In this document: positions 18,703 to 39,815 of the stretch, piece by piece
How the letters are laid out: every line of letters begins with the position of its first letter
Position numbering within the stretch: the stretch's first letter is position 1
Assembly: GCA_965223725.1 (NCBI GenBank)
Contig: CBDCXE010000005.1
Location: 248,001-312,000 of the forward strand
Length of the DNA: 64,000 nucleotides
Direction: 5' to 3'
Source: CBDCXE01 sp965223725 [NCBI: Nitrospinota bacterium]
GTDB lineage: Bacteria > Nitrospinota_A > UBA7883
Made by a program: the position numbers and the translations under genes
Notes under the pieces: generated by a model
What the model was told of the DNA's origin: nothing
Databases searched by the model: none
What the model saw: only the letters and a program-made list of their open reading frames with translations

Positions 18703-20106
18703 ATGCAGTCAGGCAAACTTGTATTTATATTAATAATATTAGCACTAGCGGCCGGCGCTATCATTCTCGGTTCCGAGTGGTACACCTCAAGGCCGAATTT
18801 TTGCGGCTCATGCCATATTATGGTGAAATATCACAAGTCGTGGTCCGATTCAAAACATAAAGATATTGCCTGTGTCGATTGTCACTATGCTCCTGGCGAA
18901 CAGCACTCTGTCGCGGCAAAATTCAAAGGATTGTCACAGCTGTTTTCCTATTTCGGCAGTGGCGACTCGTTGGTCCGCAAAGAGGCAACCATATCTGACG
19001 AATCTTGCACAAAGGTCGGGTGCCACGTGCAGGATGAAAAGTTTGGCGAGAAAAAAATCAGCTACCTGGATTCCATGACATATGACCACAAAACCCATTT
19101 TGACAAAACCATCGAGGGGCAGAAGCTGCATTGCAACACTTGCCATACCCATTCAACTAATGTTAAGCATTTTGAAGTAGCCAAGGAAACCTGTTATCTA
19201 TGCCATTTCAAAAATGTCGATTTCAACAAGGGGCGGGGCAACTGCAAGCTTTGCCATGTTTTGGATGATACGCCGCTGCAGTCACAATTCAAGGATGACC
19301 CGGGCCGGACAGATATAAAACCGATCACCCACGTATCATTGGAAACCACAGGCGTTTCGTGTGTATCGTGCCATCTTTATATAGTCGAAGGGGATGGCGC
19401 CATCAAGGAGGAGGATTGCCTGGATTGTCATGAAAATGGCGATGTGTTGGAAAAGGCTGATGATAAAAAATTGATGCACGAAAAACATGTGGCGGGGCAG
19501 GAGGCGAAATGCTTCGATTGCCACAGCCCGATCATGCATAGCAATAAAGAGAATTTCCTGGCGGCCAACAGGGCCGATTGCCAGTTGTGCCATGAAAATC
19601 ACCATATGGGCGAGTTGGCGCTGTTGAAGGGGGCTGGCATAAAAGATATTACTGGACCACCAGCGCTTATGAACAAATCGCAGACAAGTTGCGCTGGCTG
19701 CCATGTAAATGATGACCATGACAAAACCGGCCAACCATTATTGAAGGCCACATCGAAGGGGTGTGTCGATTGTCATGGCATGGAATATAAACAGAAATTT
19801 GATACTGACAAAGCCCAGCTATCGGCCGCGTTGGAGGAAGCGAAAACCCTTGGGTCGGAAGCTTTGGCGGCGATTGAAAAGGGCGTTGGAATCGCCTCCT
19901 CGGAAGATATCGACGAAGCCAGGGAGATGTATGACAAGGGTAAAGAATATTTGAGCGCTATTGAAATGGCCCATGGTGTGCACAACAAAAAATATTCAAT
20001 CAAAATTATTGATGAGGCCCTTGGATATTTCGAGGATGTTATCGACGAAATGGAAGAAGTGATAGACGAAATGGAAGAAGCGACTATAAAAAATAGTGCA
20101 AATTAG
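18703..20106 (+). CDS. Membrane-anchored dodecahaem cytochrome c with NapC/NirT-like N-terminus
   Basis: A 467-residue protein. One N-terminal helix (about 5-24) anchors it to the inner membrane, and the first haem site follows at Cys34 (FCGSCHIMVKYHKSW), as in NapC/NirT quinol dehydrogenases. I count 11 CXXCH motifs (CGSCH, CVDCH, CNTCH, CYLCH, CKLCH, CVSCH, CLDCH, CFDCH, CQLCH, CAGCH, CVDCH) and one CX4CH (CTKVGCH), so up to 12 haems. After about residue 365 a haem-free, acidic helical tail ends with a repeated VIDEMEE. It is the first gene of the molybdoenzyme module and probably carries electrons between the quinone pool and the periplasmic enzyme. Confidence 0.9.
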   Translation: MQSGKLVFILIILALAAGAIILGSEWYTSRPNFCGSCHIMVKYHKSWSDSKHKDIACVDCHYAPGEQHSVAAKFKGLSQLFSYFGSGDSLVRKEATISDESCTKVGCHVQDEKFGEKKISYLDSMTYDHKTHFDKTIEGQKLHCNTCHTHSTNVKHFEVAKETCYLCHFKNVDFNKGRGNCKLCHVLDDTPLQSQFKDDPGRTDIKPITHVSLETTGVSCVSCHLYIVEGDGAIKEEDCLDCHENGDVLEKADDKKLMHEKHVAGQEAKCFDCHSPIMHSNKENFLAANRADCQLCHENHHMGELALLKGAGIKDITGPPALMNKSQTSCAGCHVNDDHDKTGQPLLKATSKGCVDCHGMEYKQKFDTDKAQLSAALEEAKTLGSEALAAIEKGVGIASSEDIDEAREMYDKGKEYLSAIEMAHGVHNKKYSIKIIDEALGYFEDVIDEMEEVIDEMEEATIKNSAN

Positions 20107-20179
20107 CCACTTACCATACCTGACAGTTTTTGACGAAGCATCAGGGATGAATACCATACCGTACTTAAAGGAGAAACAG

Positions 20180-21034
20180 ATGAGAAAAGCGGGAAAACAA
20201 ACACGACGAGACATTTTTAAAGTCGCAGGCTACGCTTCTGCTGGGGCCGCGGCCGCGCTGGCTTCAGGCTCGGCGACTTCACTGGCTGCGGAAAAGAAGG
20301 CGCCCAGGTGGGCGATGGTCATGGATTTGCGCCGGTGCACCGGGGTGCGGGCATGCACAGTCGCGTGTAAATCAGAATATGACACACCACTCGGGTCGTG
20401 GAACACTGTGGTCAAGGAAGTTGCGTATGGAAACTATCCAGACAGGAAAAAAGATTTTCTTCCCCGGCTTTGCAACCATTGCGAGGGCGCAAAGGATGAT
20501 GGGGGTCCACCTTGCGTAAAAATCTGCCCTGAAAACGTATCTGGCGATCGAGCGAAATATGTCACCCCGTCCGGAGATAAGATCCGCTACCGAACCGGCG
20601 CCACCTATAAGCGCCCGGACGGCGTTATCATGTTCGATAACTCTCTTTGCATCGGCTGTGGTAAATGCATCGACGCCTGCCCATATGGCGCCCGGTCGTT
20701 TAACCAAAGGCTGACCTCTGGCAAGGACAAGGGAAAAAATGGAATATCCAAATGTTCGTTTTGCGCCCATAGAATCGACAATGGTGTGGAACCTGCGTGT
20801 GTGAACACATGCCCGAACGACGCCCGTATTTTCGGTGATTTGAACGACCCGGCCAGCGAAGTGGCAAAACTTGTGAAAAAGCACAAACTTATGGAGAAGT
20901 CCAAAGAGACAACCTTGCTGGCGGACGAAGGAACATTGCCGCAGGTGTTTTATATCGACCCGAATGGTTCGGTGAAGCGGTATTCCATAACCAAGGAAAA
21001 CAAGATGGAGCAGTTCCGCGACATGATCGTCTAG
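20180..21034 (+). CDS. Tat-exported four-cluster ferredoxin subunit (PsrB/DmsB/NrfC-like)
   Basis: The 284-residue product from ATG 20180 has AAGGAG upstream and a Tat signal (TRRDIFKVAGYASAG). Four Cys clusters follow: C53-TG-V56-RA-C59-TVA-C63 (canonical second Cys is Val), LCNHCEGAKDDGGPPCVKIC, LCIGCGKCIDAC, and KCSFCAH with ACVNTCPND. This is the electron-transfer subunit of DMSO-reductase-family enzymes and pairs with the Mo subunit 50 bp downstream. Its exported form and the absence of an NrfD/PsrC membrane subunit imply that the multihaem cytochrome is the membrane partner. The Val substitution suggests one altered cluster, such as [3Fe-4S]. Confidence 0.9.
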   Translation: MRKAGKQTRRDIFKVAGYASAGAAAALASGSATSLAAEKKAPRWAMVMDLRRCTGVRACTVACKSEYDTPLGSWNTVVKEVAYGNYPDRKKDFLPRLCNHCEGAKDDGGPPCVKICPENVSGDRAKYVTPSGDKIRYRTGATYKRPDGVIMFDNSLCIGCGKCIDACPYGARSFNQRLTSGKDKGKNGISKCSFCAHRIDNGVEPACVNTCPNDARIFGDLNDPASEVAKLVKKHKLMEKSKETTLLADEGTLPQVFYIDPNGSVKRYSITKENKMEQFRDMIV

Positions 21035-21084
21035 CGTCGCCTGTTATTTAAAACATATATAAAAATTATACTGGAGATAGAACA

Positions 21085-23604
21085 ATGTCGAATATAAATC
21101 GACGAAATTTGATAAAGATGGCCGCTTTGGCCGGTGTGGCGCTTGGTGGAAACCTGGCGTCGGGGAAAAATGCTTTTGCTGGAACGATAGACCTGGCCAA
21201 GGGTGGGAAAGACTTTTCTCCATCCACAGGCGCGCAACGAGAAAAAATAGCCACCGCATGCTGGTCCTGTGTCACCCGTGACCCAATGGTCGGGTATGTA
21301 GAAAATGGACGGCTGGTTAAGCTGGAGGGCAACCCTGACTCTGTCCGTACAAATGGGAAAATATGCGCCAAGGGTCAGGCCGGTGTCAACCAGGTATACG
21401 ACCCGGATCGTATATTGCACCCGCTTAAACGGGTTGGTAAAAGAGGTGACGGGAAGTGGAAAAAGATTTCATGGGATGAGGCTTTGACGGAGATATCTGG
21501 GCGGTTGAAAAAACTGCGGGACGCGGGAACACCGGAGAAATTCATGTTCCACTACGGCCGTATGAAAAGCTCCAACAGCAAGATGATTAAAAGCGTTTTC
21601 CTCTCCACCTATGGAACGAAAACCATCGGCAACCATACATCGATTTGTGAAGGAGCCAAGTGGGTGGGCCAGGAGCTGACCTGGGGAAAACATTACGACA
21701 ATTGGGATTTTGACAAAACCAAATATATCCTGAATTTCGGCAGCGCTGTGCTGGAATCGCACACGAACCATATACCGATGTCGCAACGGTTTATGAAAGC
21801 AAGGGTGGATCGTGGTGTAAAGGCGGTGACCTTCGACGTTCGTCTATCCAATACCGCCGCGAAGTCTGACGAGTGGATACCTATAAACCCAGGAACCGAT
21901 GGCGCCGTGGCATTGGCCATGTGCAATGAGGTGATGCAAAACAACTGGTACGATAAAAGTTTTCTGGAATATGTGAAAGCCACAGCCAATATTGACGACA
22001 CGGTAGACACCAAAGCCGCCACGTTGAAAAAACATTTCGCGCAATACACCGCCGAATGGGCGGAGAAAGTATCCGGCGTGCCGGCGTCAACCATCAAACG
22101 GGTCGTCAAGGAATTCGCCACCGCAAAACCGGCGGTGGTTATAAGCTATCGCGGCGCTGTCGCCCATTACAACGGGTCGGAGAATGAGCGGGCGATCCAG
22201 ACATTGGCCGCATTGACCGGCAACATAGACAACCCTGGCGGCCGTTGCCGCGCGGTGGCCCCAAAGTGGAAATACCATAAAGGCCCAAAGGATAAGCCAA
22301 AAGCCAAGGCGCTGAAGATCCTGAAAGGCTTTAAGGGTGATATCGCCTATGCCACCCATGGGGCGAACCATCAAGTCTTTAAAATGATCAAGGATGGCAG
22401 CGCTGGCCGGCCGGAAGTCTATATGTGGTATTGCTATTCGCCGGTCTATTCCAACTGCGATTGTAAAGAGAATGTGGAAGTATTAAAGGATGAGAAGCTT
22501 ATCCCATTCTCTGTCTGCGTTAACCCCTTTTATGACGAGGCGGCGGCGCTGGCGGACATTATACTGCCAGATGTCACCTATCTGGAAAAATGGGACTGGG
22601 AAGATGGTGTTGGGCCAGACCAGATCGCCGAATATTATACCCGTCAGCCATTGGTCAAACCGTTGGGTGAGGCCCGCGATTTTTGTGATGTTGTGTGCGA
22701 CCTGGCCGACCGTATGGGGATGCCGTTAGGGTTTGGATCGAAAAAAGAGTTTGTCCAATACTCATGCGAGCATACCCCTGGTGTGAAAGAGGCAGGCGGT
22801 TTTGACTATATGATGAAGCATGGAATTTGGCGCGACAAAAAGGCGAAAGGGAAATATTTCGGCTATAAAGCCGAGGTGTCACCGAAAAAGCTGAAAGCTG
22901 ATGGTGTCGTCCTGGACGAGGCCACCGGAACTTACTGGAACTGGAAAAAGGCGCATGCCAAAGGACCGGATGAAGGATATACGACGACTAAAAACGCATA
23001 TAAAGGTTATGTGGGGCAGAAGGTCGGGGGTAAAGTTGTAAAAGGCTTTAAGCCAGACAAACTGAATAAATCAGGATACTTTGAAATCTATTCCGGATTT
23101 ATGGAAGCTAAAGGGCACAACCCGCTGCCTAGCTATATCCCGATTCCTGAGCATCAGAGCAAGAAGAGTAATCAACTGATTCTGACAACTTATAAGGTGC
23201 CGGTGCAGATACACTCGCGCAGCGCAAATTGCAAATGGCTGACCGAGATATATCACGAAAACCCTGCCAAGATTAATCCTTCCACGGCAAAGTCGATGGG
23301 GATCAGCGATGGTGATAAGATCAAGGTCTCTTCGAACATCAATAATATTACCACCACAGCAAATGTTACTGATGAGGTGATCCCGGGTGTTGTTGCTATT
23401 TCGTTTCATTGTGGCCATTGGGAATATGGCAGATATGCGTCTGGCAAAAAATCGCCAATGGCTGGTGACAATGACCCAGACCTGAAACTGAAATGGTGGA
23501 AGGGAAATGGCGCTCATCCTAACTGGGTGATACCAAACTGGCCAGACCCGATATCTGGTCAGCAACGAACTATGGATCAGCTTGTCAATGTTTCGAAAGC
23601 ATAA
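21085..23604 (+). CDS. Tat-exported molybdopterin oxidoreductase catalytic subunit (PsrA/PhsA/ArrA-like)
   Basis: An 839-residue protein with a Tat signal (INRRNLIKMAALAGVALGG). The N-terminal cluster motif is C59-x2-C62-x3-D66-x27-C94: spacing is canonical but the third Cys is Asp (GAC at 21280-21282). C188 in NHTSICEGAKW is the expected Mo ligand, as in polysulfide, thiosulfate and arsenate reductases. Molybdopterin domains continue (NPGTDGAVALAMCNE; GNIDNPGGRC), and the C-terminal MGD-binding domain contains NPSTAKSMGISDGDKI and AISFHCGHWEYG. Substrate cannot be told from sequence; polysulfide, thiosulfate, arsenic or selenium oxyanions are options. The chaperone gene follows after 9 bp. 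Confidence 0.88.
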   Translation: MSNINRRNLIKMAALAGVALGGNLASGKNAFAGTIDLAKGGKDFSPSTGAQREKIATACWSCVTRDPMVGYVENGRLVKLEGNPDSVRTNGKICAKGQAGVNQVYDPDRILHPLKRVGKRGDGKWKKISWDEALTEISGRLKKLRDAGTPEKFMFHYGRMKSSNSKMIKSVFLSTYGTKTIGNHTSICEGAKWVGQELTWGKHYDNWDFDKTKYILNFGSAVLESHTNHIPMSQRFMKARVDRGVKAVTFDVRLSNTAAKSDEWIPINPGTDGAVALAMCNEVMQNNWYDKSFLEYVKATANIDDTVDTKAATLKKHFAQYTAEWAEKVSGVPASTIKRVVKEFATAKPAVVISYRGAVAHYNGSENERAIQTLAALTGNIDNPGGRCRAVAPKWKYHKGPKDKPKAKALKILKGFKGDIAYATHGANHQVFKMIKDGSAGRPEVYMWYCYSPVYSNCDCKENVEVLKDEKLIPFSVCVNPFYDEAAALADIILPDVTYLEKWDWEDGVGPDQIAEYYTRQPLVKPLGEARDFCDVVCDLADRMGMPLGFGSKKEFVQYSCEHTPGVKEAGGFDYMMKHGIWRDKKAKGKYFGYKAEVSPKKLKADGVVLDEATGTYWNWKKAHAKGPDEGYTTTKNAYKGYVGQKVGGKVVKGFKPDKLNKSGYFEIYSGFMEAKGHNPLPSYIPIPEHQSKKSNQLILTTYKVPVQIHSRSANCKWLTEIYHENPAKINPSTAKSMGISDGDKIKVSSNINNITTTANVTDEVIPGVVAISFHCGHWEYGRYASGKKSPMAGDNDPDLKLKWWKGNGAHPNWVIPNWPDPISGQQRTMDQLVNVSKA

Positions 23605-23613
23605 TGACAAAGG

Positions 23614-24243
23614 ATGAGTATTGAAGAAGATTTAAACGTTACAATCGCCAGGGGCAAAATTTATATGCTCCTGGCGACCCTGTTTAAGAATACACCAGAC
23701 CAGGAAACAGCCGAGCTGGTTTTATCGGAAGAATTTCGTCATATAGCGAACAGTTCCGGAGTTGAACTGGAGCCAAGGGAGGCGGTTGTTGTGGATGAGG
23801 CTTGCCTTGAGGAGCTGTCCACAGAATTTACCAAACTGTTTGTTGGGCCTGGGCCCCATCTGTCGCCTCACGAATCGGTTCAGCGTGAGCTGCCAGATGG
23901 TAAATGGGGGACATTGTGGGGCGATTCTGCGGTGGCTGTGAATCAATTCTATGAATCGGTTGGACTGAAACTACCTGATGAAGAGAAACGTCTGCCAGAT
24001 AATCTGAGCCTTGAATTCGAGTTCATGTCAATGCTTCTCGCGGAAGAAGAAGAACTTATGAATAATAGCGCCAACAGTGAAGAAGTGGATAAAATAAGGT
24101 CTACACAGCAAGCGTTTTTAAAAGAGCACCTTCTTTCATGGGTTCCCCGGTTTATGGAACGGGTTATAGAAACCAGTGAAAGCAACTTTTTTATTGATGT
24201 GGCGCAGCTTACAAAAAATTTTTTACAAAGCGAAAAAGTTTAA
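23614..24243 (+). CDS. TorD/DmsD-family molybdoenzyme chaperone
   Basis: A 209-residue all-helical protein starting nine bases after the Mo subunit. It shows the TorD-like pattern: RGKIYMLLATLFKNTPD near the start, then ELSTEFTKLFVGPGPHLSPHESV with the conserved Y/F-x-x-L-F-x-G-x-G-P and P-x-E/H-S motifs, and LSLEFEFMSMLLAEEEEL. Such chaperones bind the Tat signal of the catalytic subunit and help insert the Mo cofactor before export. Placement next to a Tat-dependent Mo enzyme supports the role. Confidence 0.88.
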   Translation: MSIEEDLNVTIARGKIYMLLATLFKNTPDQETAELVLSEEFRHIANSSGVELEPREAVVVDEACLEELSTEFTKLFVGPGPHLSPHESVQRELPDGKWGTLWGDSAVAVNQFYESVGLKLPDEEKRLPDNLSLEFEFMSMLLAEEEELMNNSANSEEVDKIRSTQQAFLKEHLLSWVPRFMERVIETSESNFFIDVAQLTKNFLQSEKV

Positions 24244-24450: not shown

Positions 24451-24789
24451 ATGGAACACAGCATTACAGCGATTCTTAACTCGGCTCGCACTTTGAAGCA
24501 GGGCACAACAATGCATATAAGCAAAGATGCGCCCGAGTATATTGAAGCCATAAACTATATTGGCGCGAATGAAGCCGATATGGAAAAAGCTGGGTTGAGC
24601 GATGGCGATGAAGTGAATGCCAGCTCGGATTTCGGCACTGTCACGCTGCCCATAAAGCAGATGGATCTAGCGCCTGGTTGCGCATTCATGCCGCTGTCAT
24701 ATCTTGCCAACAGGTTGGTGTCTCCAGATACCAAAGGGACTGGAGTGCCTGGGTTCAAAGACACACAAGTTACAATAACCAAAGCTTAA
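24451..24789 (+). CDS. fwdD: Formylmethanofuran dehydrogenase subunit D (MGD-binding domain)
   Basis: A 112-residue protein equivalent to FwdD/FmdD, which closes over the molybdopterin guanine dinucleotide of the B subunit. Features: LNSARTLKQGTTM at the start, EADMEKAGLSDGDEVNASS (typical of the dinucleotide-binding beta-barrel), and APGCAFMPLSYLANRLVSPD with the TKGTGVPGFKDTQVTI end. AAGGAAGG precedes the ATG. It leads the four-gene fwd operon. Methylotroph Fhc complexes lack this subunit, so its presence argues for a cofactor-containing, redox-active enzyme. Confidence 0.88.
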   Translation: MEHSITAILNSARTLKQGTTMHISKDAPEYIEAINYIGANEADMEKAGLSDGDEVNASSDFGTVTLPIKQMDLAPGCAFMPLSYLANRLVSPDTKGTGVPGFKDTQVTITKA

Positions 24790-24824: not shown

Positions 24825-26147
24825 ATGGCATCAGAAGTTGCAACTTTAGAAGAGACGACTGATAAAGTAAAAACATATGAAAATATTGTCTGTCCGTTTT
24901 GCGCCACTTTATGTGACGATATCAAGGTGGAAGTTACGGACAACGTGGTCACAAAGGTAAATGGATGTAACCTTTGCAAAGGTGTTTTCCTGAACGCCCA
25001 CAAAGAGTGGACAGTACCAATGATCAACGGCAAAGAGGTGGCCTATGACGACGCTGTGGACAAAGCGGCGGAAATCATGGCGGCGGCCAACAATCCGCTG
25101 ATTTATGGCCTGGCCGCGACAGATGTCGAAGCGCAGAAAATGTGCATCGAGCTTGCGGACATGACCGGAGCGAACCTGGATAACGCTTCGTCTGTTTGAC
25201 ACTCACCGACAATGGTGGCATTACAGCTCGGCGGTGCGCCGGCGGCCACTTTGGGAGAGGTAAAGAACAGAGCCGATCTCATAATTTTCTGGGGGTCCAA
25301 TCCAGCGGAGTCTCACCCGAGGCATTTCACCCGATATTCCGGGACCGTCAAAGGTAGATTCACCAAAAGAGGACGTAAGGACCGGCATATAGTCGTGGTC
25401 GACATCCGCAAAACTCCGTCTGTTAAATATTCAGATGAGTTCATCCAGATAGACCCAGGGACCGATTATGAAGTCCTGAACGCTATGAGGATGCTGACCA
25501 ACGGAATGAAACCGGACGCTGACATGGTTGGCGGTATAAAGATAGAAGTACTGGAAGAGCTGGTGGAACGATGTAAAAAAGCCAAGATGGGCGTTATGTT
25601 CTTCGGTCAGGGCATCACCGAGACCAGGGGCAAGCACCAGAACTCATCCGGCATATACCAGTTCGGTAAAGACATGTCGCGCCATTCGAAGTTTCTGACA
25701 TTGCCGATGCGCGGGCATTATAACGTTGTCGGCAGCGGCAACACCATGTGCTGGCAGACCGGCTATCCGTTTGCGGTGAACTTTGGCAGAAGCTTTCCGC
25801 AGTTTAACCCGGGCGAGTTTTCCGTGGTTGATTTGTTGCTTAGAAGAGAGCCGGACGCAGCGATGATTGTGGCGGCGGAGCCGATGGACCATTTGCCATA
25901 CGAAGCTGCGCGGCACCTGGAGAACATCCCGACAATTGTGCTGGATCCGCGGGAGACGCTGACCACCAAGATCGCAGATGTTGTGATCCCGGTCAAGCAT
26001 GCCGGGATTTCGGTGGAAGGGACAGCCTACAGGATGGACCATATACCACTCAAAATGGCAAAAATTATGGATTCACCCTGGCCAAAAGATGATGTGCCGC
26101 TAGGGCGTATCATCGAAAAGGTTAAAGAAATGAGGGCTAAACAGTAA
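24825..26147 (+). CDS. fwdB: Formylmethanofuran dehydrogenase subunit B, predicted selenoprotein (in-frame TGA)
   Basis: A 440-codon frame continuous except for TGA at 25197-25199 (codon 125); AGGAGG precedes ATG 24825. The frame resumes directly as HSPTMVALQLGG, so SV-TGA-HSPT matches the family motif SV(C/U)HxPT, where Cys or selenocysteine binds W/Mo (Cys118 or Sec in methanogen FwdB). The N-terminus has the [4Fe-4S] motif C23-x2-C26-x3-C30 with C48 or C51. Later family blocks are intact (FWGSNPAESHPRH, VDIRKTPSV, FFGQGITETRGKHQN). FwdB is the CO2/formate-reducing subunit of formyl-MFR dehydrogenase. I read TGA as Sec; a nonsense mutation, or a TGC/TGT-to-TGA sequencing error, remains possible. 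Confidence 0.86.
25197..25199 (+). other. In-frame UGA, predicted selenocysteine codon of fwdB
   Basis: Codon 125 of fwdB. Both sides are coding in the same frame and the position is the metal-ligand Cys/Sec of the FwdB family. No frameshift is needed to join the halves. Confidence 0.8.
25206..25231 (+). promoter_or_regulatory. Candidate bacterial SECIS hairpin in fwdB
   Basis: Upper stem AATG (25211-25214) pairs with CATT (25219-25222) around loop GTGG (25215-25218), which offers the GU needed for SelB binding. Counting the T of TGA as 1, loop GU is at 19-20, near its place in E. coli fdhF (23-24). An outer pairing CCGA (25206-25209) / TCGG (25228-25231) could extend it with an internal loop. 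A second possible hairpin CGGC-GGTGC-GCCG lies at 25229-25241, with GGU at the start of its loop; the two overlap and are exclusive. Confidence 0.5.
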
Positions 26148-26149
26148 TT

Positions 26150-27793
26150 ATGGGAATACGTATAGATAACGGCGAGGTCGTTGACCCCGCGCATAATGAG
26201 GACATGGTCAAGCGATCTGTCCATATCAAGGATGGAAAGATCGTTAAAGACTCTGGCAAGGACGCCCATGTCATAGACGCGACCGATTGTGTGGTTATGG
26301 CAGGCGGTGTGGATATCCACACCCATGTTGCCGGGCCAAAAGTTAACTTTGCCCGGCTGATGTTGCCGGAGGATCATCGGTATGAGCATGTCTCCCGCGA
26401 GGACGGATACGAGCGATCCGGCACCGGCGGTGTGGCGGCGACAACGTTTGTGACTGGCTATCGTTATTCCGAAATGGGTTATACAACAATTGTGGAGCCT
26501 GCGGTGCCGCCGCTCGGCGCGCGGCATGCGCATGACGAGCTTGTGGATATACCGCAGGTCAACAAGGCGATTTTCGTTTTGTTGGGCAACTCTGAGATTG
26601 TGTATCAATACCTGGAAAAGGGCGAAAAAACCAAGCTGCAGGAATATCTGGCCTGGATTGTTGACGCGACCAAATCTTATTCGGTCAAGATCGTTAACCC
26701 GGGCGGGACGAACCTTTGGAAATATCGGGGCAACCTGAACAGTATCGACGAGAAGCTGCGTGACTTTGATATTACACCGCGGGACATTGTGGTGTCGATA
26801 TCAGATGCCATGACAGCTTTGGGCATGCCGCACCCGCTTCATTTGCACTGTAATAATCTGGGCATCCCAGACAGCTACAAGGCAGTGGTCGAAACTGTGA
26901 AGGCCATGGAGGGCAGGCCGTTGCATCTGACGCATTTGCAGTTCAACAGCTATGGCAGCTCTGGCAAACGCAAGTTCAACTCCGAAGCGCCGAGGCTGGC
27001 CGACATTGTCAACTCGAACAAAAACATATCTATCGATGTGGGGCAGGTGGTGTTTGGTAAAACAACCACGATCACCGCCGATGGCCCGTTCGAGTTTCAT
27101 CTGCATAAACTGACCGGCGGCAAATGGTATAACGGCGATGTGGAGTGCGAGGATGGTTGTGGTGTTGTGCCATACGACTATAAACGCAAATCGTTTGTTA
27201 ACAGCATCCAGTGGGCGGCCGGGCTGGAGCTGTTTTTGCTGGTGGACGATCCGTGGAGGGTATACCTGACCACGGACCATCCGAACGCCGGGCCGTTTAT
27301 CTCCTACCCGTTTATTATTCGCATGCTGATGGACAAGGATTTTCGTAAGGAGCAGATCTCGAAGATATCCGCAGAGGCCAGCTCTGAAATACCGCTGAAG
27401 GTTGTAGAGCGGGAATATTCATTATACGAAATAGCCGTCATCACCCGCGCCGGCACTGCTAAAAGGTTGGGGCTGGTGGATAAAGGGCACATCGGACCGG
27501 GCGCAGATGCGGATGTCACCATATACAGGAAGAACTCGAACTATGAAGATATGTTCGCCAAACCTGCTTATGTGATTAAAGATGGTGAAATCGTGGTCAA
27601 GGATGGAAAAGTTTGCAAGCAGGTGTTTGGGAGCACGTTTCATCTCCAGCCAGAGCGTGGCGCTGCTGATATACAGTCTGACCTGGAAGATTTCTTTGCC
27701 GAGTTTTATACGGTGAACATAAAGAACTATCCGGTCGGCCTGGAATATCTACCTAATTCGGAACTGGTCCCTTGCAATGGAGTTGTTGAATGA
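26150..27793 (+). CDS. fwdA: Formylmethanofuran dehydrogenase subunit A (amidohydrolase)
   Basis: A 547-residue amidohydrolase-fold subunit. The metal-binding HxH is in GGVDIHTHVAGPKVNF, the carboxylatable Lys in SVKIVNPGGTNLWK, further ligands are in LHLHCNNLG and LHLTHLQFNSYG, and the catalytic Asp in YLTTDHPNAGPF. In archaeal Fwd, subunit A transfers formate, made at the FwdB site, onto methanofuran; in methylotroph FhcA it runs the reverse hydrolysis. It begins two bases after the fwdB stop and overlaps fwdC by four bases, so translation is coupled. Length matches FwdA/FhcA (about 550-580). Confidence 0.93.
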   Translation: MGIRIDNGEVVDPAHNEDMVKRSVHIKDGKIVKDSGKDAHVIDATDCVVMAGGVDIHTHVAGPKVNFARLMLPEDHRYEHVSREDGYERSGTGGVAATTFVTGYRYSEMGYTTIVEPAVPPLGARHAHDELVDIPQVNKAIFVLLGNSEIVYQYLEKGEKTKLQEYLAWIVDATKSYSVKIVNPGGTNLWKYRGNLNSIDEKLRDFDITPRDIVVSISDAMTALGMPHPLHLHCNNLGIPDSYKAVVETVKAMEGRPLHLTHLQFNSYGSSGKRKFNSEAPRLADIVNSNKNISIDVGQVVFGKTTTITADGPFEFHLHKLTGGKWYNGDVECEDGCGVVPYDYKRKSFVNSIQWAAGLELFLLVDDPWRVYLTTDHPNAGPFISYPFIIRMLMDKDFRKEQISKISAEASSEIPLKVVEREYSLYEIAVITRAGTAKRLGLVDKGHIGPGADADVTIYRKNSNYEDMFAKPAYVIKDGEIVVKDGKVCKQVFGSTFHLQPERGAADIQSDLEDFFAEFYTVNIKNYPVGLEYLPNSELVPCNGVVE

Positions 27794-28584
27794 TCAAACT
27801 TACGTTAAAGGAAGCGCTTACCATACCAGCGGAGGCTGACTGCATTACGCCGGATAACCTTCATAACAAATCGAACGACGAGATAAAGAGTCAACCGGTC
27901 TATTGGGGCAACAAGAAGCTGACCCTGGGCGATCTGTTCGATGTGGAAGGTGAGAAATCGGATGAAATAACCGTTATAGGCGATTGCGACAAAGTGAAGC
28001 TCATTGGCAGCCAGATGAGCTTTGGGTCGATCCATGTCAAAGGTAATGTCGGTTTTAACACTGGATCTTATATGACCGGAGGCAAAATCACGGTTGATGG
28101 AGACGCCCGGGATTATCTGGGCGCCATGATGGAAGGCGGCCTGGTTGTATGTAAAGGTAACGCGGGCAACTTCACTGGTGGAGCTTATAAAGGCGAGATG
28201 GCGGGGATGCAAGGCGGCGAGATTATCGTGCATGGCAACGCCGGGATGGAGACCGGCTGTTTCATGCGTCGCGGGTTGATAGTGATCGGCGGCGACACGG
28301 ACGATTTTGCCGGGGTGTTCATGCTGGCGGGCACCATCCTGGTGCTGGGTAACGCAGGTTTGCGCGCCGGGGCCAATATGAAACGCGGGACCATCATATT
28401 AATGAACGAGACTGATGTACTGCCTGGATTTTATGAAGGGTGTGAGTTTGAATCGCCTGCTATATCGATGATACTCAAACGGGCGTCCACCTTCGGGTTT
28501 GATACTCCTGACAGCTCTGCTTTCAAACGCTTTTATGGTGATGTTACTTCCCTGGGCAAAGGCGAGATACTGATCAGAGCGTAA
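27790..28584 (+). CDS. fwdC: Formylmethanofuran dehydrogenase subunit C (beta-helix)
   Basis: A 264-residue protein starting in the ATGA overlap with fwdA. It carries a run of Gly-rich beta-helix repeats (GGKITVDGDARDYLGAMMEG, GLVVCKGNAGNFTG, GGEIIVHGNAGMETGCFMRR, GTILVLGNAGLRAG), the fold shared by FwdC, FhcC and the C-terminal domain of glutamate synthase. FwdC is the scaffold that holds A, B and D. It is the last gene of the operon; no ftr/fhcD, fwdE, fwdF or fwdG follows. Confidence 0.93.
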   Translation: MIKLTLKEALTIPAEADCITPDNLHNKSNDEIKSQPVYWGNKKLTLGDLFDVEGEKSDEITVIGDCDKVKLIGSQMSFGSIHVKGNVGFNTGSYMTGGKITVDGDARDYLGAMMEGGLVVCKGNAGNFTGGAYKGEMAGMQGGEIIVHGNAGMETGCFMRRGLIVIGGDTDDFAGVFMLAGTILVLGNAGLRAGANMKRGTIILMNETDVLPGFYEGCEFESPAISMILKRASTFGFDTPDSSAFKRFYGDVTSLGKGEILIRA

Positions 28585-28751
28585 AGGCAATATTCCCCCT
28601 CGCTATTTTTTTGGCGTTATTGTCAAAAAAACAGGATAAAGATTATAAAACAGCAACCTTTTTGTCATACAATATTAAGGTTGCGTCTTAACGTAATTTA
28701 AACAACAGTCATGATTTGTAAAAATTAACAGAAAATCTTTTGGACATAATA

Positions 28752-30251
28752 ATGACAAAGCTTCTTTCTGCATTGCAGGAAAACTTTCTTGGTCATTCAC
28801 CTACCTGGTACGAGCGTACCATTCTCATTTTTCTGGTGATAAATCCAGTTCTGTTATACACGGTTGGCCCTTTTATAACCGGATGGGCGATCATGGCGGA
28901 GTTTATTTTCACGTTGGCAATGGCATTAAAATGTTATCCTCTCCAACCGGGGGGGTTGCTGGCGATAGAGGCGATAGCCCTCGGTATGGCGTCACCAGAG
29001 GCTGTATATAAAGAAGCTCTATTAAATTTTCCTGTGATCCTTCTGCTTATATTCATGGTGGCTGGAATCTATTTTATGAAAGAGTTTCTGCTATATATTT
29101 TTGGCAGCCTGATTGTAAAGGTACGATCAAAAATATTACTGTCGCTGCTGTTTTGCTTCTTAGGAGCGTTTCTATCAGCGTTTCTGGACGCGCTGACGGT
29201 CACCGCTGTGATCATATCTGTGGGCATTGGTTTTTTCAGCGTGTACCACAAATTCGCCTCATCAAAACAATCGATACAAACATATGATGGCAAAGATGAC
29301 GCCCATATCGATAGCATAGACAAGGAAGATTTATACAAATTTCGTGGCTTTTTGCGCAATATACTAATGCACGGCGCCGTGGGCACCGCGTTGGGTGGCG
29401 TCACCACATTGGTTGGCGAACCACAGAATTTGCTGATAGCCCATGTTATGGAATGGCATTTTGTCGAGTTTTTTATAAAAATGGCGCCTATAACCATGCC
29501 CACCCTAGTTGTCGGATTGGCAACCTGTGTCCTCGTGGAAAAGCTGGGTATATTTGGTTATGGTTACGAGCTACCGAAAAAAGTGCGCATGGTGCTGGAA
29601 GAGTATTCAGCCAAGGAATCGGCTAAAAGGGACGACAAAGGAAGAGCCCGACTGATTGTGCAAGCGGTGGTGGGTGTTTCTCTCATCCTGTCGTTGGCGT
29701 TTCATATTGCTGAAGTCGGCATCATTGGCCTGATGATAATTATTATGCTCACCGCGCTGAATGGGATCACAGAAGAGCATCAGATCGGAAGGGCGTTCGA
29801 AGAGGCCTTGCCGTTCACGGCATTGCTCGTTGTATTCTTTTCCATAGTTGCTGTCATCCATGAACAGCACCTGTTCACACCGATAATAGACTGGACACTA
29901 ACCATGGAAGGCCACACCCAGTTGGTGGCGTTTTTTTTGGCCAACGGTATATTGTCGATGATTAGTGACAACGTGTTCGTCGCGACTATTTATATCAGCG
30001 AGGCGAAGGCGGCGTTCGACGCAGGCAGCATTACCCAGGATCAGTTCGACCTGATCGCAGTGGCCATAAATACCGGCACAAACATACCAAGCGTCGCCAC
30101 ACCGAACGGTCAGGCGGCGTTTCTGTTTCTTCTTACTTCCGCTGTATCAGCCCTGGTACGGCTTTCTTATATCCGCATGATAATCATGGCTTTACCTTAC
30201 ACTTTATCAATGAGCATAACGGCGCTGTTGGCGACCATATATTTACTGTAG
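28752..30251 (+). CDS. nhaB: Na+/H+ antiporter NhaB
   Basis: A 499-residue polytopic inner-membrane protein with about 12 helices. Sequence blocks such as [54 protein letters not shown] and [20 protein letters not shown] are characteristic of NhaB, an electrogenic sodium/proton antiporter. ATG 28752 is preferred to a TTG at 28740 four codons earlier. It follows the fwd operon after 167 bp and directly precedes glyS by five bases, so those two may share a transcript. It suggests a saline or Na+-dependent habitat. Confidence 0.93.
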
Positions 30252-36777: not shown

Positions 36778-38607
36778 CTATTTTCTGTCTGGCACTTCCC
36801 GCTTTCTTTCAACAGCGAAGTTGATCAGATAGTTGAACATCCTGATCAGCCGACCGCCATTGCGTTTCTGGTCGCTCCAGTGGCCGATCATGCCAATGGT
36901 GCGCGCCAGTACGAAAAAGCCGTTGAGCGTATCATCCGGGAACCCAAGGTCCTTGAGGATACAACCCATGCATCCGTCAACGTTCAGGATAAGGTTATCC
37001 TTTTTCCCGGTGGTAACCTTCTCCACTTCAAGGGCATAATCAAGGTGCGGCGAGCGAAGATCCAGCTCTTTCACAGCCTTGATAAGCTCCTTGACGCGCT
37101 TGTCCGGGTTCTTCAACGATTTCACCCTGTGGCCGATACCAGGCACCGGACCCACATTCTTCTTCATGTAAGCCAGGAAACCGGGGATATCGTTCGGGTA
37201 GTTATTCAATCCATAGTTGAAATATTTCGCAGCGTCCGTAACCGCTCCGCCAAACCGTGGACCAATCATGATCAACCCGGCCGCGACCGACTGGGACATA
37301 CCGATGCCAGCGCATGCGGCCATGATAGTGCCGAAGGCGCCAGAGACGCAAGGTCCATGATCCGCCGCCAGCATGATAATGCGTCGGATAATATCCGCTT
37401 CCTTATCATTGATAAGCTTCTTGTTCCACAACAGGCCGATAACGTGTGGTATATCATAGCCCTTATCGATAAGCTCCGACGCCGGGTAACCGCAATAGAG
37501 CGGCTCTTCACCGCGATCATCGGTGATGGTCGATTTGAGCAAAGGCTGCACCATGACATCGCCTGTGCTGATAACCTCTTCGACTTTCCGTGGAAGGTCT
37601 GGCAGTTGCGAAAGAGGAATTTCTTCCTGCTCAACAATCACACCAGTGGCAATCATATCTTCATAGGATTGCTTGATGGCAGAGCCCAGGTCGCCAAAGG
37701 TCGGCGGCACAATTGCGCCCGCTTTTTTCAAGGCTTCACTCTTTGATCGGGCAGAGCCTTCGCCATGGGCGCCTTCCTTGGCGCCAGCGTGGCCAAACTT
37801 CATCCCCTTGGGCAGCGATTCCTGGCAAAAGCCGGAGATCGATGCGATGAGTTTTATCCTGCGTGGCTTCTCGGCGTACCATTCCGCCGCCTGCTCTTCC
37901 AGGTTGCCGCCCATCTCGCCAACGATGATCACAGCCTTGGTTTGCGGATCCTTTTCGAACAGCTCCAAATAAGTGATAAAGTCGGTGCAAGGATAGGAGT
38001 CGCCGCCAATACCGATGGTGGTGGTGATACCGTCCGCGAACTGGCTGACCAGCCACATGATCTCGTTCGACAGGCCGCCCGATTTGGTCAGCACACCGAA
38101 GGAGCCTTGGCGATGCAGCTTGGAGAGCTTCAGGTTGTTATACTCGCCGCCCACAACACCCAGCCGACACTCACCAGCGGACATAATGCCGATGGCGGAT
38201 GGGCCGTTTAACAGTTTGCCAACTTTTTTGGAATGCTTGATCAACAGCTTGGCGTCCTTCTCCGGCACACCTTCCGTGATCATGGATACGAACTGGATCT
38301 TGTCGTTATCCAGCGCGTCCATACAGCCTTGATAGGCCCGGTTGGCGCCGATATAGACCAACACCGTATTCGATTCCGGATGGTTGTCCGTGGCTTCTTG
38401 CAATGTTTTGTAAATCGGTATCGCCAGAAACTGCGAGCCAAACGGTATCTCCGCCGTTTTGCCTGCGTCCGGCGGATATACGAACGCTGTCACATTGAAG
38501 TCGAGCTTGCACAGATGCGAAAACTCCGCCATTCGTTTTGCAGCGTTCACTCCGGCCACGCCGCCCATGATTACAACTTTTGATTCTTTACTTGCTACAA
38601 TGCTCAT
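36778..38607 (-). CDS. aclA: ATP-citrate lyase large (alpha) subunit AclA
   Basis: A 609-residue subunit. The N-terminal succinyl-CoA-synthetase-like part (1-330) has the CoA-binding GGVAGVNAAKRMAEF, TKSGGLSNEIMW and the phosphohistidine loop FGHAGAKEGAHGEGS. The C-terminal citrate-synthase-like part has GPCVSGAFGTIMAACAG, GPRFGGAVTDAAKYF and PGIGHRVKSLKNPDKRV. With AclB it cleaves citrate with ATP and CoA to acetyl-CoA and oxaloacetate, the key step of the reductive TCA cycle. The size and the two-gene layout are those of Chlorobium-type ACL, not the fused eukaryotic enzyme. It starts two bases after the aclB stop. Confidence 0.95.
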   Translation of the reverse strand: MSIVASKESKVVIMGGVAGVNAAKRMAEFSHLCKLDFNVTAFVYPPDAGKTAEIPFGSQFLAIPIYKTLQEATDNHPESNTVLVYIGANRAYQGCMDALDNDKIQFVSMITEGVPEKDAKLLIKHSKKVGKLLNGPSAIGIMSAGECRLGVVGGEYNNLKLSKLHRQGSFGVLTKSGGLSNEIMWLVSQFADGITTTIGIGGDSYPCTDFITYLELFEKDPQTKAVIIVGEMGGNLEEQAAEWYAEKPRRIKLIASISGFCQESLPKGMKFGHAGAKEGAHGEGSARSKSEALKKAGAIVPPTFGDLGSAIKQSYEDMIATGVIVEQEEIPLSQLPDLPRKVEEVISTGDVMVQPLLKSTITDDRGEEPLYCGYPASELIDKGYDIPHVIGLLWNKKLINDKEADIIRRIIMLAADHGPCVSGAFGTIMAACAGIGMSQSVAAGLIMIGPRFGGAVTDAAKYFNYGLNNYPNDIPGFLAYMKKNVGPVPGIGHRVKSLKNPDKRVKELIKAVKELDLRSPHLDYALEVEKVTTGKKDNLILNVDGCMGCILKDLGFPDDTLNGFFVLARTIGMIGHWSDQKRNGGRLIRMFNYLINFAVERKREVPDRK

Positions 38608-38609
38608 TT

Positions 38610-39815
38610 CTAGTTGTCCTCCCCTTTCAATGCGAACTTCACGATGTCGGTAAGGGGTGTATACCGGTCATAAACGTGAATATCGAAGCCTTCGTCGGAA
38701 AGCTTTCTCATAAAGTCCAGACCCACGGCCTCGTTTGGCCCGCCACGGCGGACCCAGATTTTTACACCGTCCATCTTGCCCTGCTCCTTCGCTTTCCTGA
38801 ACCCGGCTATGATACCGGTGAATGTGGCTTTGACATCGGTGAAGTTGGCGATGGCGCCGCCCACGATAATATGCTTGATGCCGGGCAGTGAACAAATTTT
38901 GTCAGTCAAGGCTTCCACAGCCCAGGAGGGTGGATCACCAGAGTATTCTGAATAGTTGGCCAGAGTAGAACCCATGGCAATAACAGCGTCGGAGTAGAAA
39001 ACCGAGGCGCCGCCGCCAGCAGGCAACATGGCCACTTCGCCGCCTGGTATTTCGATCAGTTTCACAGAGCCTTTAACCCTGCTGTCTATCTCCATTATCT
39101 GTTTCTCATCTTCTGTATAAGCCCTGCCAAACTCCGGCGCGAACGAAAAGTTCCAGTCCGCATGGCGGAACCGGGCGTCGCCATCGAGCATAACCACTGC
39201 GTCCAGCGCGCACAGTTTGCCGTCGTTCGGGTTGATGATCAGCGGGTTGATCTCCATATAGGAGCCATCCTCGTTGTCGTAACATTCATAGAGCCGGTGC
39301 GCGAACTTGTTCATTTTTCCCACCAGTTCGCCGTCGAACCCGGCTGCTTTCGCGCAAGCGTCCAGCTGCTCATCGGTCGGTTTTTCACCAACCTCTACGA
39401 ATGTTTTGCTTACTTTTTCCCAGTTTTCCTCGACTTCGATACCGCCAAATTTAGCCATGAAAATCTCCGCCCCATCGCGGGTAGACTTTACGGCAAGGTA
39501 GTATTCATCATCGTGTGACAGCATCTCAGCGATAATAACCTGAGAGATGATCAACCCCTGGACCTCTTTATTCAGGATTTCTTTTGCCGCGGCAATAGCC
39601 TGATCGATATCCAGATCTACTTTTACCAAACCCAGTTTGAACCTGGACCCGATAGCTTCATGCGCTTTTACAACCATTTTGCATTCACGCATCCATTGAT
39701 TTGACTGAACCAGAGATTCGATCTGATCTGTAGTGGAAACAACAACGTGCCTGGGCGTTCTTATACCCCACTTGTTGAACAGTTCCATTCCCGGCCCTTC
39801 GAGCACCTTGGCCAT
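38610..39815 (-). CDS. aclB: ATP-citrate lyase small (beta) subunit AclB
   Basis: A 401-residue ATP-grasp subunit: MAKVLEGPGMELFNKWGIRT at the start, then KMVVKAHEAIGSRFKLGLVK, MEINPLIINPNDGKLCALDA and the CoA-ligase-like AMLPAGGGASVFYSDAVI with LPGIKHIIVGGAIANFTD. ATG 39815 is chosen because GGAGG lies just before it; an upstream start at 39878 has no such site. It precedes aclA in one operon and supplies the ATP-binding half of the enzyme. Confidence 0.95.
   Translation of the reverse strand: MAKVLEGPGMELFNKWGIRTPRHVVVSTTDQIESLVQSNQWMRECKMVVKAHEAIGSRFKLGLVKVDLDIDQAIAAAKEILNKEVQGLIISQVIIAEMLSHDDEYYLAVKSTRDGAEIFMAKFGGIEVEENWEKVSKTFVEVGEKPTDEQLDACAKAAGFDGELVGKMNKFAHRLYECYDNEDGSYMEINPLIINPNDGKLCALDAVVMLDGDARFRHADWNFSFAPEFGRAYTEDEKQIMEIDSRVKGSVKLIEIPGGEVAMLPAGGGASVFYSDAVIAMGSTLANYSEYSGDPPSWAVEALTDKICSLPGIKHIIVGGAIANFTDVKATFTGIIAGFRKAKEQGKMDGVKIWVRRGGPNEAVGLDFMRKLSDEGFDIHVYDRYTPLTDIVKFALKGEDN

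What the first reader, a model, noticed from the sequence alone, without database searches (positions are those of the whole stretch)
24825..26147. Bacterial FwdB with an in-frame UGA at the metal-ligand position: a predicted selenoprotein
Directly visible: the frame is intact before and after TGA 25197-25199, with no indel, and the following codons read HSPT. Known: in FwdB the residue of the SV(C/U)HxPT motif binds W or Mo and is Sec in some methanogens. Inference: this bacterial enzyme uses selenocysteine and is catalytically active in CO2/formate chemistry. A simple annotation pipeline would report two broken genes. A selenocysteine FwdB outside archaea would be unusual, to my knowledge.
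Basis: partly seen in the sequence, partly recalled or inferred. Interest (0 to 1): 0.92.

Follow-up and report, generated by a model that had tools for sequence, protein, structure and literature searches.

The report
Selenocysteine FwdB enzyme in Nitrospinota bacteria
An apparently broken bacterial gene is almost certainly intact: its early stop codon is read as the rare amino acid selenocysteine in an enzyme that interconverts carbon dioxide and a one-carbon unit, a use of selenium known mainly from methane-making archaea and, in my searches, reported for bacteria in only one earlier paper.

Summary
Confirmed. fwdB (24825-26147) has one in-frame TGA (25197-25199) at the Mo/W-ligand position; the frame is otherwise intact. 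All six relatives found, in six Nitrospinota-type MAGs, have TGA at the same codon (one also has a frameshift further on). Their genomes carry tRNA-Sec (6 of 6), selD (6), selA (5) and selB (5, plus a fragment). A hairpin after the TGA meets the published bacterial SECIS rules, and six successive codons in it are synonymously frozen in 7 of 7 (permutation p 5e-5). TGA is an ordinary stop elsewhere in the window. I read it as a selenoprotein; the window's own genome is not held, so its sel genes are inferred.

It is not the first bacterial case: PMC4807772 (2016) predicts planctomycete Sec-FmdB in a DBAC operon. New, as far as I could search: Nitrospinota; a second bacterial clade (6 of 95 genomes of another, unnamed phylum) with another SECIS; rejection of a single bacterial Sec clade (p-AU about 0.001). 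Relatives link FwdB to H4MPT enzymes and a corrinoid methyltransferase operon, and lack acetyl-CoA synthase, so methyl oxidation to CO2 is the likeliest role (inference).

The parts
24825..26147 (+). fwdB, formylmethanofuran dehydrogenase subunit B, 440 aa with Sec at residue 125
25197..25199 (+). in-frame TGA read as selenocysteine, the expected Mo/W ligand (SV-U-HSPT)
   Evidence: same codon TGA in 6 of 6 relatives
25214..25250 (+). predicted bacterial SECIS: lower helix of 6 bp and upper hairpin of 7 bp with one bulged U; 13 of 13 pairs form in 7 of 7 sequences
   Evidence: 12 of 13 pairs never vary, so there is no covariation support
25226..25243 (+). upper SECIS hairpin, loop GUG at 25234-25236 (34 nt between UGA and loop), bulged U at 25228
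   Evidence: codons +9 to +14 (25224-25241) synonymously invariant
24451..24789 (+). fwdD (molybdopterin dinucleotide-binding subunit)
   Evidence: PF01568 50.5 bits, over cut-off; NF042908 FwdD 74.5 bits, below that model's cut-off of 175
26150..27793 (+). fwdA (amidohydrolase subunit that carries formyl between formate and methanofuran)
   Evidence: TIGR03121 707.5 bits, cut-off 392.75; aligned to 9sw6 chain I
27790..28584 (+). fwdC
   Evidence: TIGR03122 267.3 bits, cut-off 130.65

Best explanation
The locus encodes a selenocysteine-containing formylmethanofuran dehydrogenase, FwdDBAC, of a Nitrospinota bacterium. The UGA at 25197 is decoded as selenocysteine by the bacterial machinery (SelA, SelB, tRNA-Sec, SelD), directed by an in-frame stem-loop 15-51 nt after the UGA. 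The Sec should ligate W or Mo of the bis-pterin cofactor. FwdB interconverts formate and CO2, and FwdA interconverts formate and formylmethanofuran. In these bacteria the complex most likely runs in the oxidative direction, as the last step of methyl-group oxidation on tetrahydromethanopterin (methyl donor, corrinoid protein, H4MPT, MtdB-like, Mch, FhcD/Ftr, Fwd, CO2). Shown: the UGA in 7 of 7 genes, machinery in relatives, SECIS-like conservation, gene content of relatives. Inferred: incorporation of Sec, metal, activity, direction, and sel and H4MPT genes in the window's own genome. The confidence given is for a Sec-containing FwdB; for the methyl-oxidation role I would say about 0.65.
For: Decoding: TGA in 6 of 6 relatives plus the window. 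In the six relative genomes, tRNA-Sec over the Rfam cut-off in 6 of 6 at 74-79 bits, selD over cut-off in 6 of 6, each with its own TGA, selA in 5 of 6, selB in 5 of 6 plus a C-terminal fragment in the sixth. Only 17 of 175 conserved degenerate codons are synonymously invariant, yet +9 to +14 are six in a row, permutation p 5e-5. 7 of 7 meet the bSECIS rules of PMC13188914 (legend read), against 67 of 1338 control codons of the same operon. Enzyme: TIGR03129, TIGR03121 and TIGR03122 over cut-off; CxxCxxxC plus a further Cys in 7 of 7. Pathway in the six relatives: mch over cut-off in 6 of 6, Mpt_N/MtdB-type domain in 6 of 6, FhcD over cut-off in 5 of 6 and in two pieces in the sixth, an H4MPT-biosynthesis-like cluster beside mch in G001, fhcD in a conserved operon with two MtaA/CmuA-like methyltransferases, a corrinoid protein and a corrinoid activase in 5 of 5 loci not cut by a contig end, CdhC acetyl-CoA synthase in 0 of 7 genomes.
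Against: No genome is held for the window, so its own sel and H4MPT genes are untested. The SECIS helix shows no covariation, the fold of the window stretch alone is not exceptional (z -1.35; 21 of 200 shuffles fold as well), and Rfam's SECIS_3 scores only 11.5 bits, E 9.8. selA was not found in G005, and G003 has only a selB fragment; these are fragmented MAGs. G005's fwdB also has a frameshift. No FwdF/FwdG lies in the window operon; the best FwdF match is the upstream Fe-S protein at 21.6 bits, cut-off 375, so the electron partner is unknown. The corrinoid and H4MPT-biosynthesis names rest mostly on matches below the curated cut-offs. The methyl substrate and the direction are inferred from gene content; Mer and MtrH were not searched for.
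Confidence: 0.93

Rival explanations
1. Pseudogene or sequencing/assembly error: the TGA is a real or false nonsense mutation of a Cys codon, giving two broken ORFs.
For: Standard translation gives ORFs of 124 aa and 311 aa; the stop differs from a Cys codon by one base; one relative, G005, has a frameshift in the same gene.
Against: The same TGA occurs in 7 of 7 sequences at 76-79% protein identity; the downstream frame stays conserved in 6 of 7; six successive codons are synonymously frozen.
Confidence: 0.02
2. UGA is read as another amino acid by a changed code or a suppressor tRNA (for instance Cys or Trp), not Sec.
For: A TGA alone does not tell the residue; tRNA-Sec could not be sought in the window's own genome.
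Against: 14 of 36 long window ORFs end in TGA; tRNA-Sec and selD are in 6 of 6 relative genomes; a SECIS-type element follows the codon; Sec is known at this position in archaeal FwdB (PMC13188914, table passage).
Confidence: 0.03
3. The protein is a bacterial Fhc-type scaffold (FhcB) without metal chemistry; the complex only hydrolyses formyl groups.
For: It is bacterial and its relatives hold H4MPT enzymes; Fhc complexes do this in methylotrophs (PMC10100899, passages). The CxxCxxxC motif does not discriminate, since the divergent rows L033, L035 and L036 have it too.
Against: The ligand is kept as UGA in 7 of 7 and as Cys in the other close bacterial rows, whereas the divergent rows L033, L036, L037, L134, L135 and L136 gave no match to my ligand pattern and L035 has Ser there. 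The protein is about 180 bits above the TIGR03129 cut-off. Keeping Sec in an inert scaffold would be hard to explain.
Confidence: 0.04
4. The enzyme is a Sec selenoprotein as described, but works in the reductive direction (CO2 to formyl-H4MPT for biosynthesis) rather than in methyl oxidation. This is a variant of the best explanation and overlaps with it.
For: Archaeal Fwd reduces CO2 in methanogenesis; the enzyme is reversible (established knowledge).
Against: CdhC acetyl-CoA synthase in 0 of 7 genomes; Nitrospinota fix CO2 by the rTCA cycle (PMC10839748, passages) and the window holds ATP-citrate-lyase-like genes; fhcD sits with corrinoid methyltransferase-like genes in 5 of 5 loci not cut by a contig end.
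Confidence: 0.25

Closest known systems
Sec-containing FwdB of methanogenic archaea (Methanopyrus kandleri, cited in PMC13188914; probably also 9sfi, whose residue is X)
   Same: Subunit family, Sec/Cys ligand position, FwdA/C/D partners
   Different: Archaeal SECIS elements lie in the 3' UTR (PMC1088965, passages); here a bacterial in-frame SECIS-type hairpin follows the UGA. No FwdF/G in the window operon.
Sec-FmdB of planctomycete P2 (Rhodopirellula) and two unclassified bacteria (PMC4807772, 2016, passages)
   Same: Bacterial Sec-FmdB; [quoted passage not shown] predicted from UGA, homology and SECIS
Sec fwdDB of the G377 phylum (6 of 95 genomes)
   Same: In-frame TGA at the same ligand, bacterial
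   Different: In G377 it is a second copy beside a Cys-FwdB operon and next to ModE- and TupA-like genes; SECIS loop 18 nt rather than 34 nt after the UGA (5 of 6); separate clade
Bacterial formyltransferase/hydrolase complex Fhc
   Same: Works on H4MPT-bound formyl groups; FhcD present in relatives
   Different: FhcB lacks the Mo/W cofactor (PMC10100899, table passage); here the metal ligand is kept

Membership tests
Bacterial selenoprotein | In-frame UGA aligned with Cys/Sec in homologues | tested here: met
Bacterial selenoprotein | SECIS stem-loop just downstream (loop 3-9 nt, stem 4-16 bp, G in first two loop positions, 16-37 nt from UGA, MFE at most -7.5) | tested here: met
   7 of 7 met; control 67 of 1338 codons; rules from PMC13188914 legend
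Bacterial selenoprotein | selA, selB, tRNA-Sec, selD in relatives with the same gene | tested here: met
   6 genomes: tRNA-Sec 6, selD 6, selA 5, selB 5 plus one fragment
Bacterial selenoprotein | selA, selB, tRNA-Sec, selD in the window's own genome | not testable with these tools
   no genome held; the window itself holds one tRNA, tRNA-Gln
Bacterial selenoprotein | Selenium in the full-length protein | not testable with these tools
   needs 75Se or mass spectrometry
FwdB / formylmethanofuran dehydrogenase subunit B (TIGR03129) | Score over the curated cut-off | tested here: met
   510.2 against 327.8
FwdB / formylmethanofuran dehydrogenase subunit B (TIGR03129) | [4Fe-4S] Cys motif and Cys/Sec metal ligand | tested here: met
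   ligand roles from PMC7331816 passages; the Fe-S motif alone does not discriminate, divergent rows have it too
FwdB / formylmethanofuran dehydrogenase subunit B (TIGR03129) | Genes for FwdA, FwdC and FwdD alongside | tested here: met
   FwdD only by PF01568, the W-specific FwdD model is below cut-off
Archaeal Fwd holo-complex with FwdF/FwdG | Polyferredoxin subunits | tested here: inconclusive
   none among the nine proteins at the operon that were scanned (best FwdF match 21.6 bits, cut-off 375); genomes were not searched
Fhc (FhcB without cofactor) | Loss of the metal ligand | tested here: not met
   ligand present as UGA in 7 of 7

The most novel reading that the evidence does not exclude
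Bacteria acquired Sec at the FwdB metal site at least twice independently (Nitrospinota, and the phylum of G377), each time by building a new in-frame SECIS at a different place inside the coding sequence. In Nitrospinota the Sec enzyme is the only FwdB over cut-off in each of the six MAGs and finishes a corrinoid-fed methyl-oxidation pathway on H4MPT.
Probability: 0.5. Interest if true: 0.65.

Novelty: new member of a known kind. Interest (0 to 1): 0.5.

Why it matters
It moves a catalytic selenoprotein thought of as archaeal firmly into bacteria and shows that ordinary annotation will split this gene into two. The apparent double origin with unlike SECIS elements makes testable how a gene family whose archaeal members use a 3'-UTR SECIS becomes a bacterial selenoprotein. 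The gene context predicts that uncultured relatives in Nitrospinota oxidise methyl groups; in the 2024 survey of the phylum (PMC10839748) my word searches found no 'tetrahydromethanopterin', 'H4MPT', 'formyl-' or 'selen-'.

Tried and rejected
Pseudogene, sequencing error, changed code and Fhc scaffold were tested and set aside (see rivals). Rfam gave no usable SECIS match. Covariation of the SECIS could not be shown, because 12 of 13 pairs never vary. tRNA-Sec lies on other contigs than selA and selB in the relatives (contig numbers), and the ORFs around it, judged by eye, did not look like sel genes. A selB-fwdB link was considered: selB lies upstream of fwd in G004, with about 1.3 kb and two predicted small ORFs between selB and fwdD, and a selB fragment lies upstream in G003, but in G001 the two are about 118 kb apart on one contig and in the other three they are on different contigs, so it is no general rule. 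Whether Nitrospinota FwdB groups with archaea or with other bacteria is unresolved: 97/93 with other bacteria in the full tree, but 45/5 after long rows and the SECIS columns were removed. Rows dropped: L033, L035, L036, L037, 7bkb and 9sw6. L138 was left out of both trees as too short. The group for the one-clade test was chosen after the first tree was seen. The name of the G377 phylum was not available; its gene content recalls Methylomirabilota, which is a guess from memory. For earlier reports of bacterial Sec-FwdB I saw the listings (top rows only, except the papers named) and found PMC4807772 alone; PMC5029168 and PMC12013277 hold no 'formylmethanofuran' or 'FwdB' in their main text.

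Full report
OBSERVATION. The stretch 24825-26147 (+) reads as one frame with a single TGA at 25197-25199. Read through, it is a 440-residue protein that matches formylmethanofuran dehydrogenase subunit B over the whole model (TIGR03129, 510 bits, cut-off 327.8) and aligns along its length with archaeal FwdB of known structure (best 5t5i_B, 413 bits). The TGA falls on the metal-ligand column, which is Cys in four of the five alignments shown and X, a non-standard residue, in 9sfi. Before it lies fwdD (24451-24789), after it fwdA (26150-27793) and fwdC (27790-28584).

WHO HAS IT. No genome is held for the window. A scan of the 84,980-species collection gave 6 relatives, 76-79% identical in the best segment; all are MAGs, five titled Nitrospinota or Nitrospinaceae and one Nitrospirae, the last falling in the same phylum set as the others. 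All 6 have TGA at the same codon; one, G005, also has a frameshift after about residue 339. Within that phylum 6 of 24 genomes have FwdB over the TIGR03129 cut-off, all with TGA; a seventh, G024, gave only a weak partial match. An independent gene of the window, glycyl-tRNA synthetase beta, is 53-63% identical to nine genomes of this phylum, the six among them, and at most 46% to the other matches listed, those of the rest of the phylum included (the list was cut at its lower end). So the window is from this group.

MACHINERY. In the six genomes tRNA-Sec is over the Rfam cut-off in 6 of 6, selD in 6 of 6 with a TGA of its own in each, selA in 5 of 6 (not G005), and selB in 5 of 6, with a C-terminal fragment in G003. 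Across the 24 genomes selB is over cut-off in 10, selA in 9 and selD in 10; 13 of the 24 have none of the three over cut-off, and none of those 13 has FwdB over cut-off. TGA is an ordinary stop in the window: it ends 14 of 36 long ORFs.

SECIS. Columns 18-54, counted from the T of the TGA, form a lower helix of 6 bp and an upper hairpin of 7 bp with one bulged U and loop GUG; all 13 pairs form in all 7 sequences, and 12 never vary, so covariation is silent. Constraint shows at synonymous sites instead: of 175 degenerate codons with a conserved residue (codons taken without gaps, -95 to +204), 17 are invariant in 7 of 7, and six of these are the consecutive codons +9 to +14 (permutation p 5e-5). 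The element meets the four published bacterial SECIS rules (PMC13188914, figure legend read) in 7 of 7, while 67 of 1338 other codons of the operon also do. Against: the fold of the window stretch alone is not remarkable (z -1.35), and Rfam's SECIS_3 scores 11.5 bits, E 9.8.

A SECOND BACTERIAL CASE. In a wider set of 385 genomes, one (G377) has two FwdB copies, one with and one without TGA. In its phylum 17 of 95 genomes exceed the TIGR03129 cut-off and 6 carry a TGA copy, one of them partial. In G377 that copy is a fwdD-fwdB pair beside ModE- and TupA-like genes, with no fwdA or fwdC seen among the ORFs of the 20-kb locus, while a second locus holds fwdB with Cys among ORFs that I name by eye as fwdD, fwdA, fhcD, fwdC and mch. 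The hairpin loop of the TGA copy lies 18 nt after the TGA, not 34, and has another sequence; 5 of 6 meet the rules in my test, L132 does not. In the tree of 42 proteins the 7 Nitrospinota proteins and the 6 others form separate clades, both at 100/100, the latter among Cys proteins. Forcing all 13 into one clade is rejected (p-AU 0.0008; 0.0014 after removing six long rows and the SECIS columns), and the fewest Cys/Sec changes on the tree are 3, one of them for the archaeal row. Sec thus seems to have arisen in bacteria at least twice; the root and the place of Nitrospinota relative to archaea stay open (97/93 with other bacteria, 45/5).

PATHWAY. The six relatives carry mch (6 of 6), an MtdB-type Mpt_N domain (6 of 6) and FhcD/Ftr (5 of 6 over cut-off, in two pieces in G003). 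FhcD alone is not special to them, being over cut-off in 19 of 24 genomes of the phylum. In G001 mch is followed by genes like MptN, a dihydromethanopterin-reductase-like flavoprotein, a dihydropteroate-synthase-like protein and beta-RFAP synthase; all four are below the curated cut-offs of those models. In 5 of 5 loci not cut by a contig end, fhcD shares an operon with two MtaA/CmuA-like methyltransferases, a corrinoid protein, an AcsV/RamA-like corrinoid activase and a Gfo/Idh-type dehydrogenase; two contig-edge loci (G003, G024) show the fhcD-side part. In G001, where they were scanned, one methyltransferase exceeds a curated cut-off (NF004889) and the other methyltransferase, the corrinoid protein and the activase stay below theirs. 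CdhC acetyl-CoA synthase was found in 0 of 7. Together with the rTCA cycle reported for the phylum (PMC10839748, passages) and ATP-citrate-lyase-like genes in the window, methyl oxidation to CO2 is likelier than CO2 fixation. This step is inference.

LITERATURE. Wells 2020 wrote of the absence of bacterial FwdB representatives (PMC7331816, passages); Wells 2023 found 149 bacterial FwdB and searched by BLASTX because of Sec (PMC10100899, passages). The 2026 review speaks of FwdB in methanogenic archaea (PMC13188914, passages). But PMC4807772 (2016, passages) predicts Sec-FmdB in planctomycete P2 and two unclassified bacteria, with operon fmdD-B-A-C in P2 and one of them, and notes that some organisms, P2 included, have both Sec and Cys forms. 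No paper in the held library has both 'Nitrospinota' and 'formylmethanofuran' or 'selenocysteine' and 'Nitrospinota'. Bacterial Sec-FwdB is therefore a known kind; the Nitrospinota case, the second SECIS type and the methyl-oxidation setting are the additions.

Noticed in passing
18703-24243: Directly upstream of fwdD: cytochrome with 11 CxxCH motifs, Fe-S protein like DsrO/TtrB, PhsA/ArrA-like molybdoenzyme (839 aa, no stop) and a TorD-like chaperone: a probable respiratory reductase of unknown substrate.
   Followed up: partly
36778-39815: Two minus-strand genes, one like a succinyl-CoA-ligase alpha/citryl-CoA-lyase fusion and one like a ligase beta subunit, all matches below the curated cut-offs: ATP-citrate-lyase-like, fitting an rTCA cycle.
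   Followed up: partly
28740-30251: NhaB Na+/H+ antiporter right after fwdC; in relative L001 the following gene differs, so probably no functional link.
   Followed up: no
L055 7067-10365 and onward: In genome G377 a Sec fwdDB pair sits beside ModE-like and TupA-like genes and further genes that look by eye like molybdate/tungstate transport, suggesting regulation by metal supply.
   Followed up: partly
L142 8270-15402: Conserved operon: two MtaA/CmuA-like methyltransferases, corrinoid protein, AcsV/RamA-like activase, Gfo/Idh dehydrogenase, fhcD; methyl substrate unknown.
   Followed up: partly
L088, L089, L091, L092: selD of these phylum members is itself a UGA gene. My motif found the UGA context in these 4 of 7 selD loci examined; in 3 of the 4 (not L089) the hairpin after it has a GGA loop, closer to the UGA than in fwdB.
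   Followed up: partly
L005 from about 11017: fwdB of G005 changes frame after about residue 339: assembly error or a decaying copy, not resolved.
   Followed up: no
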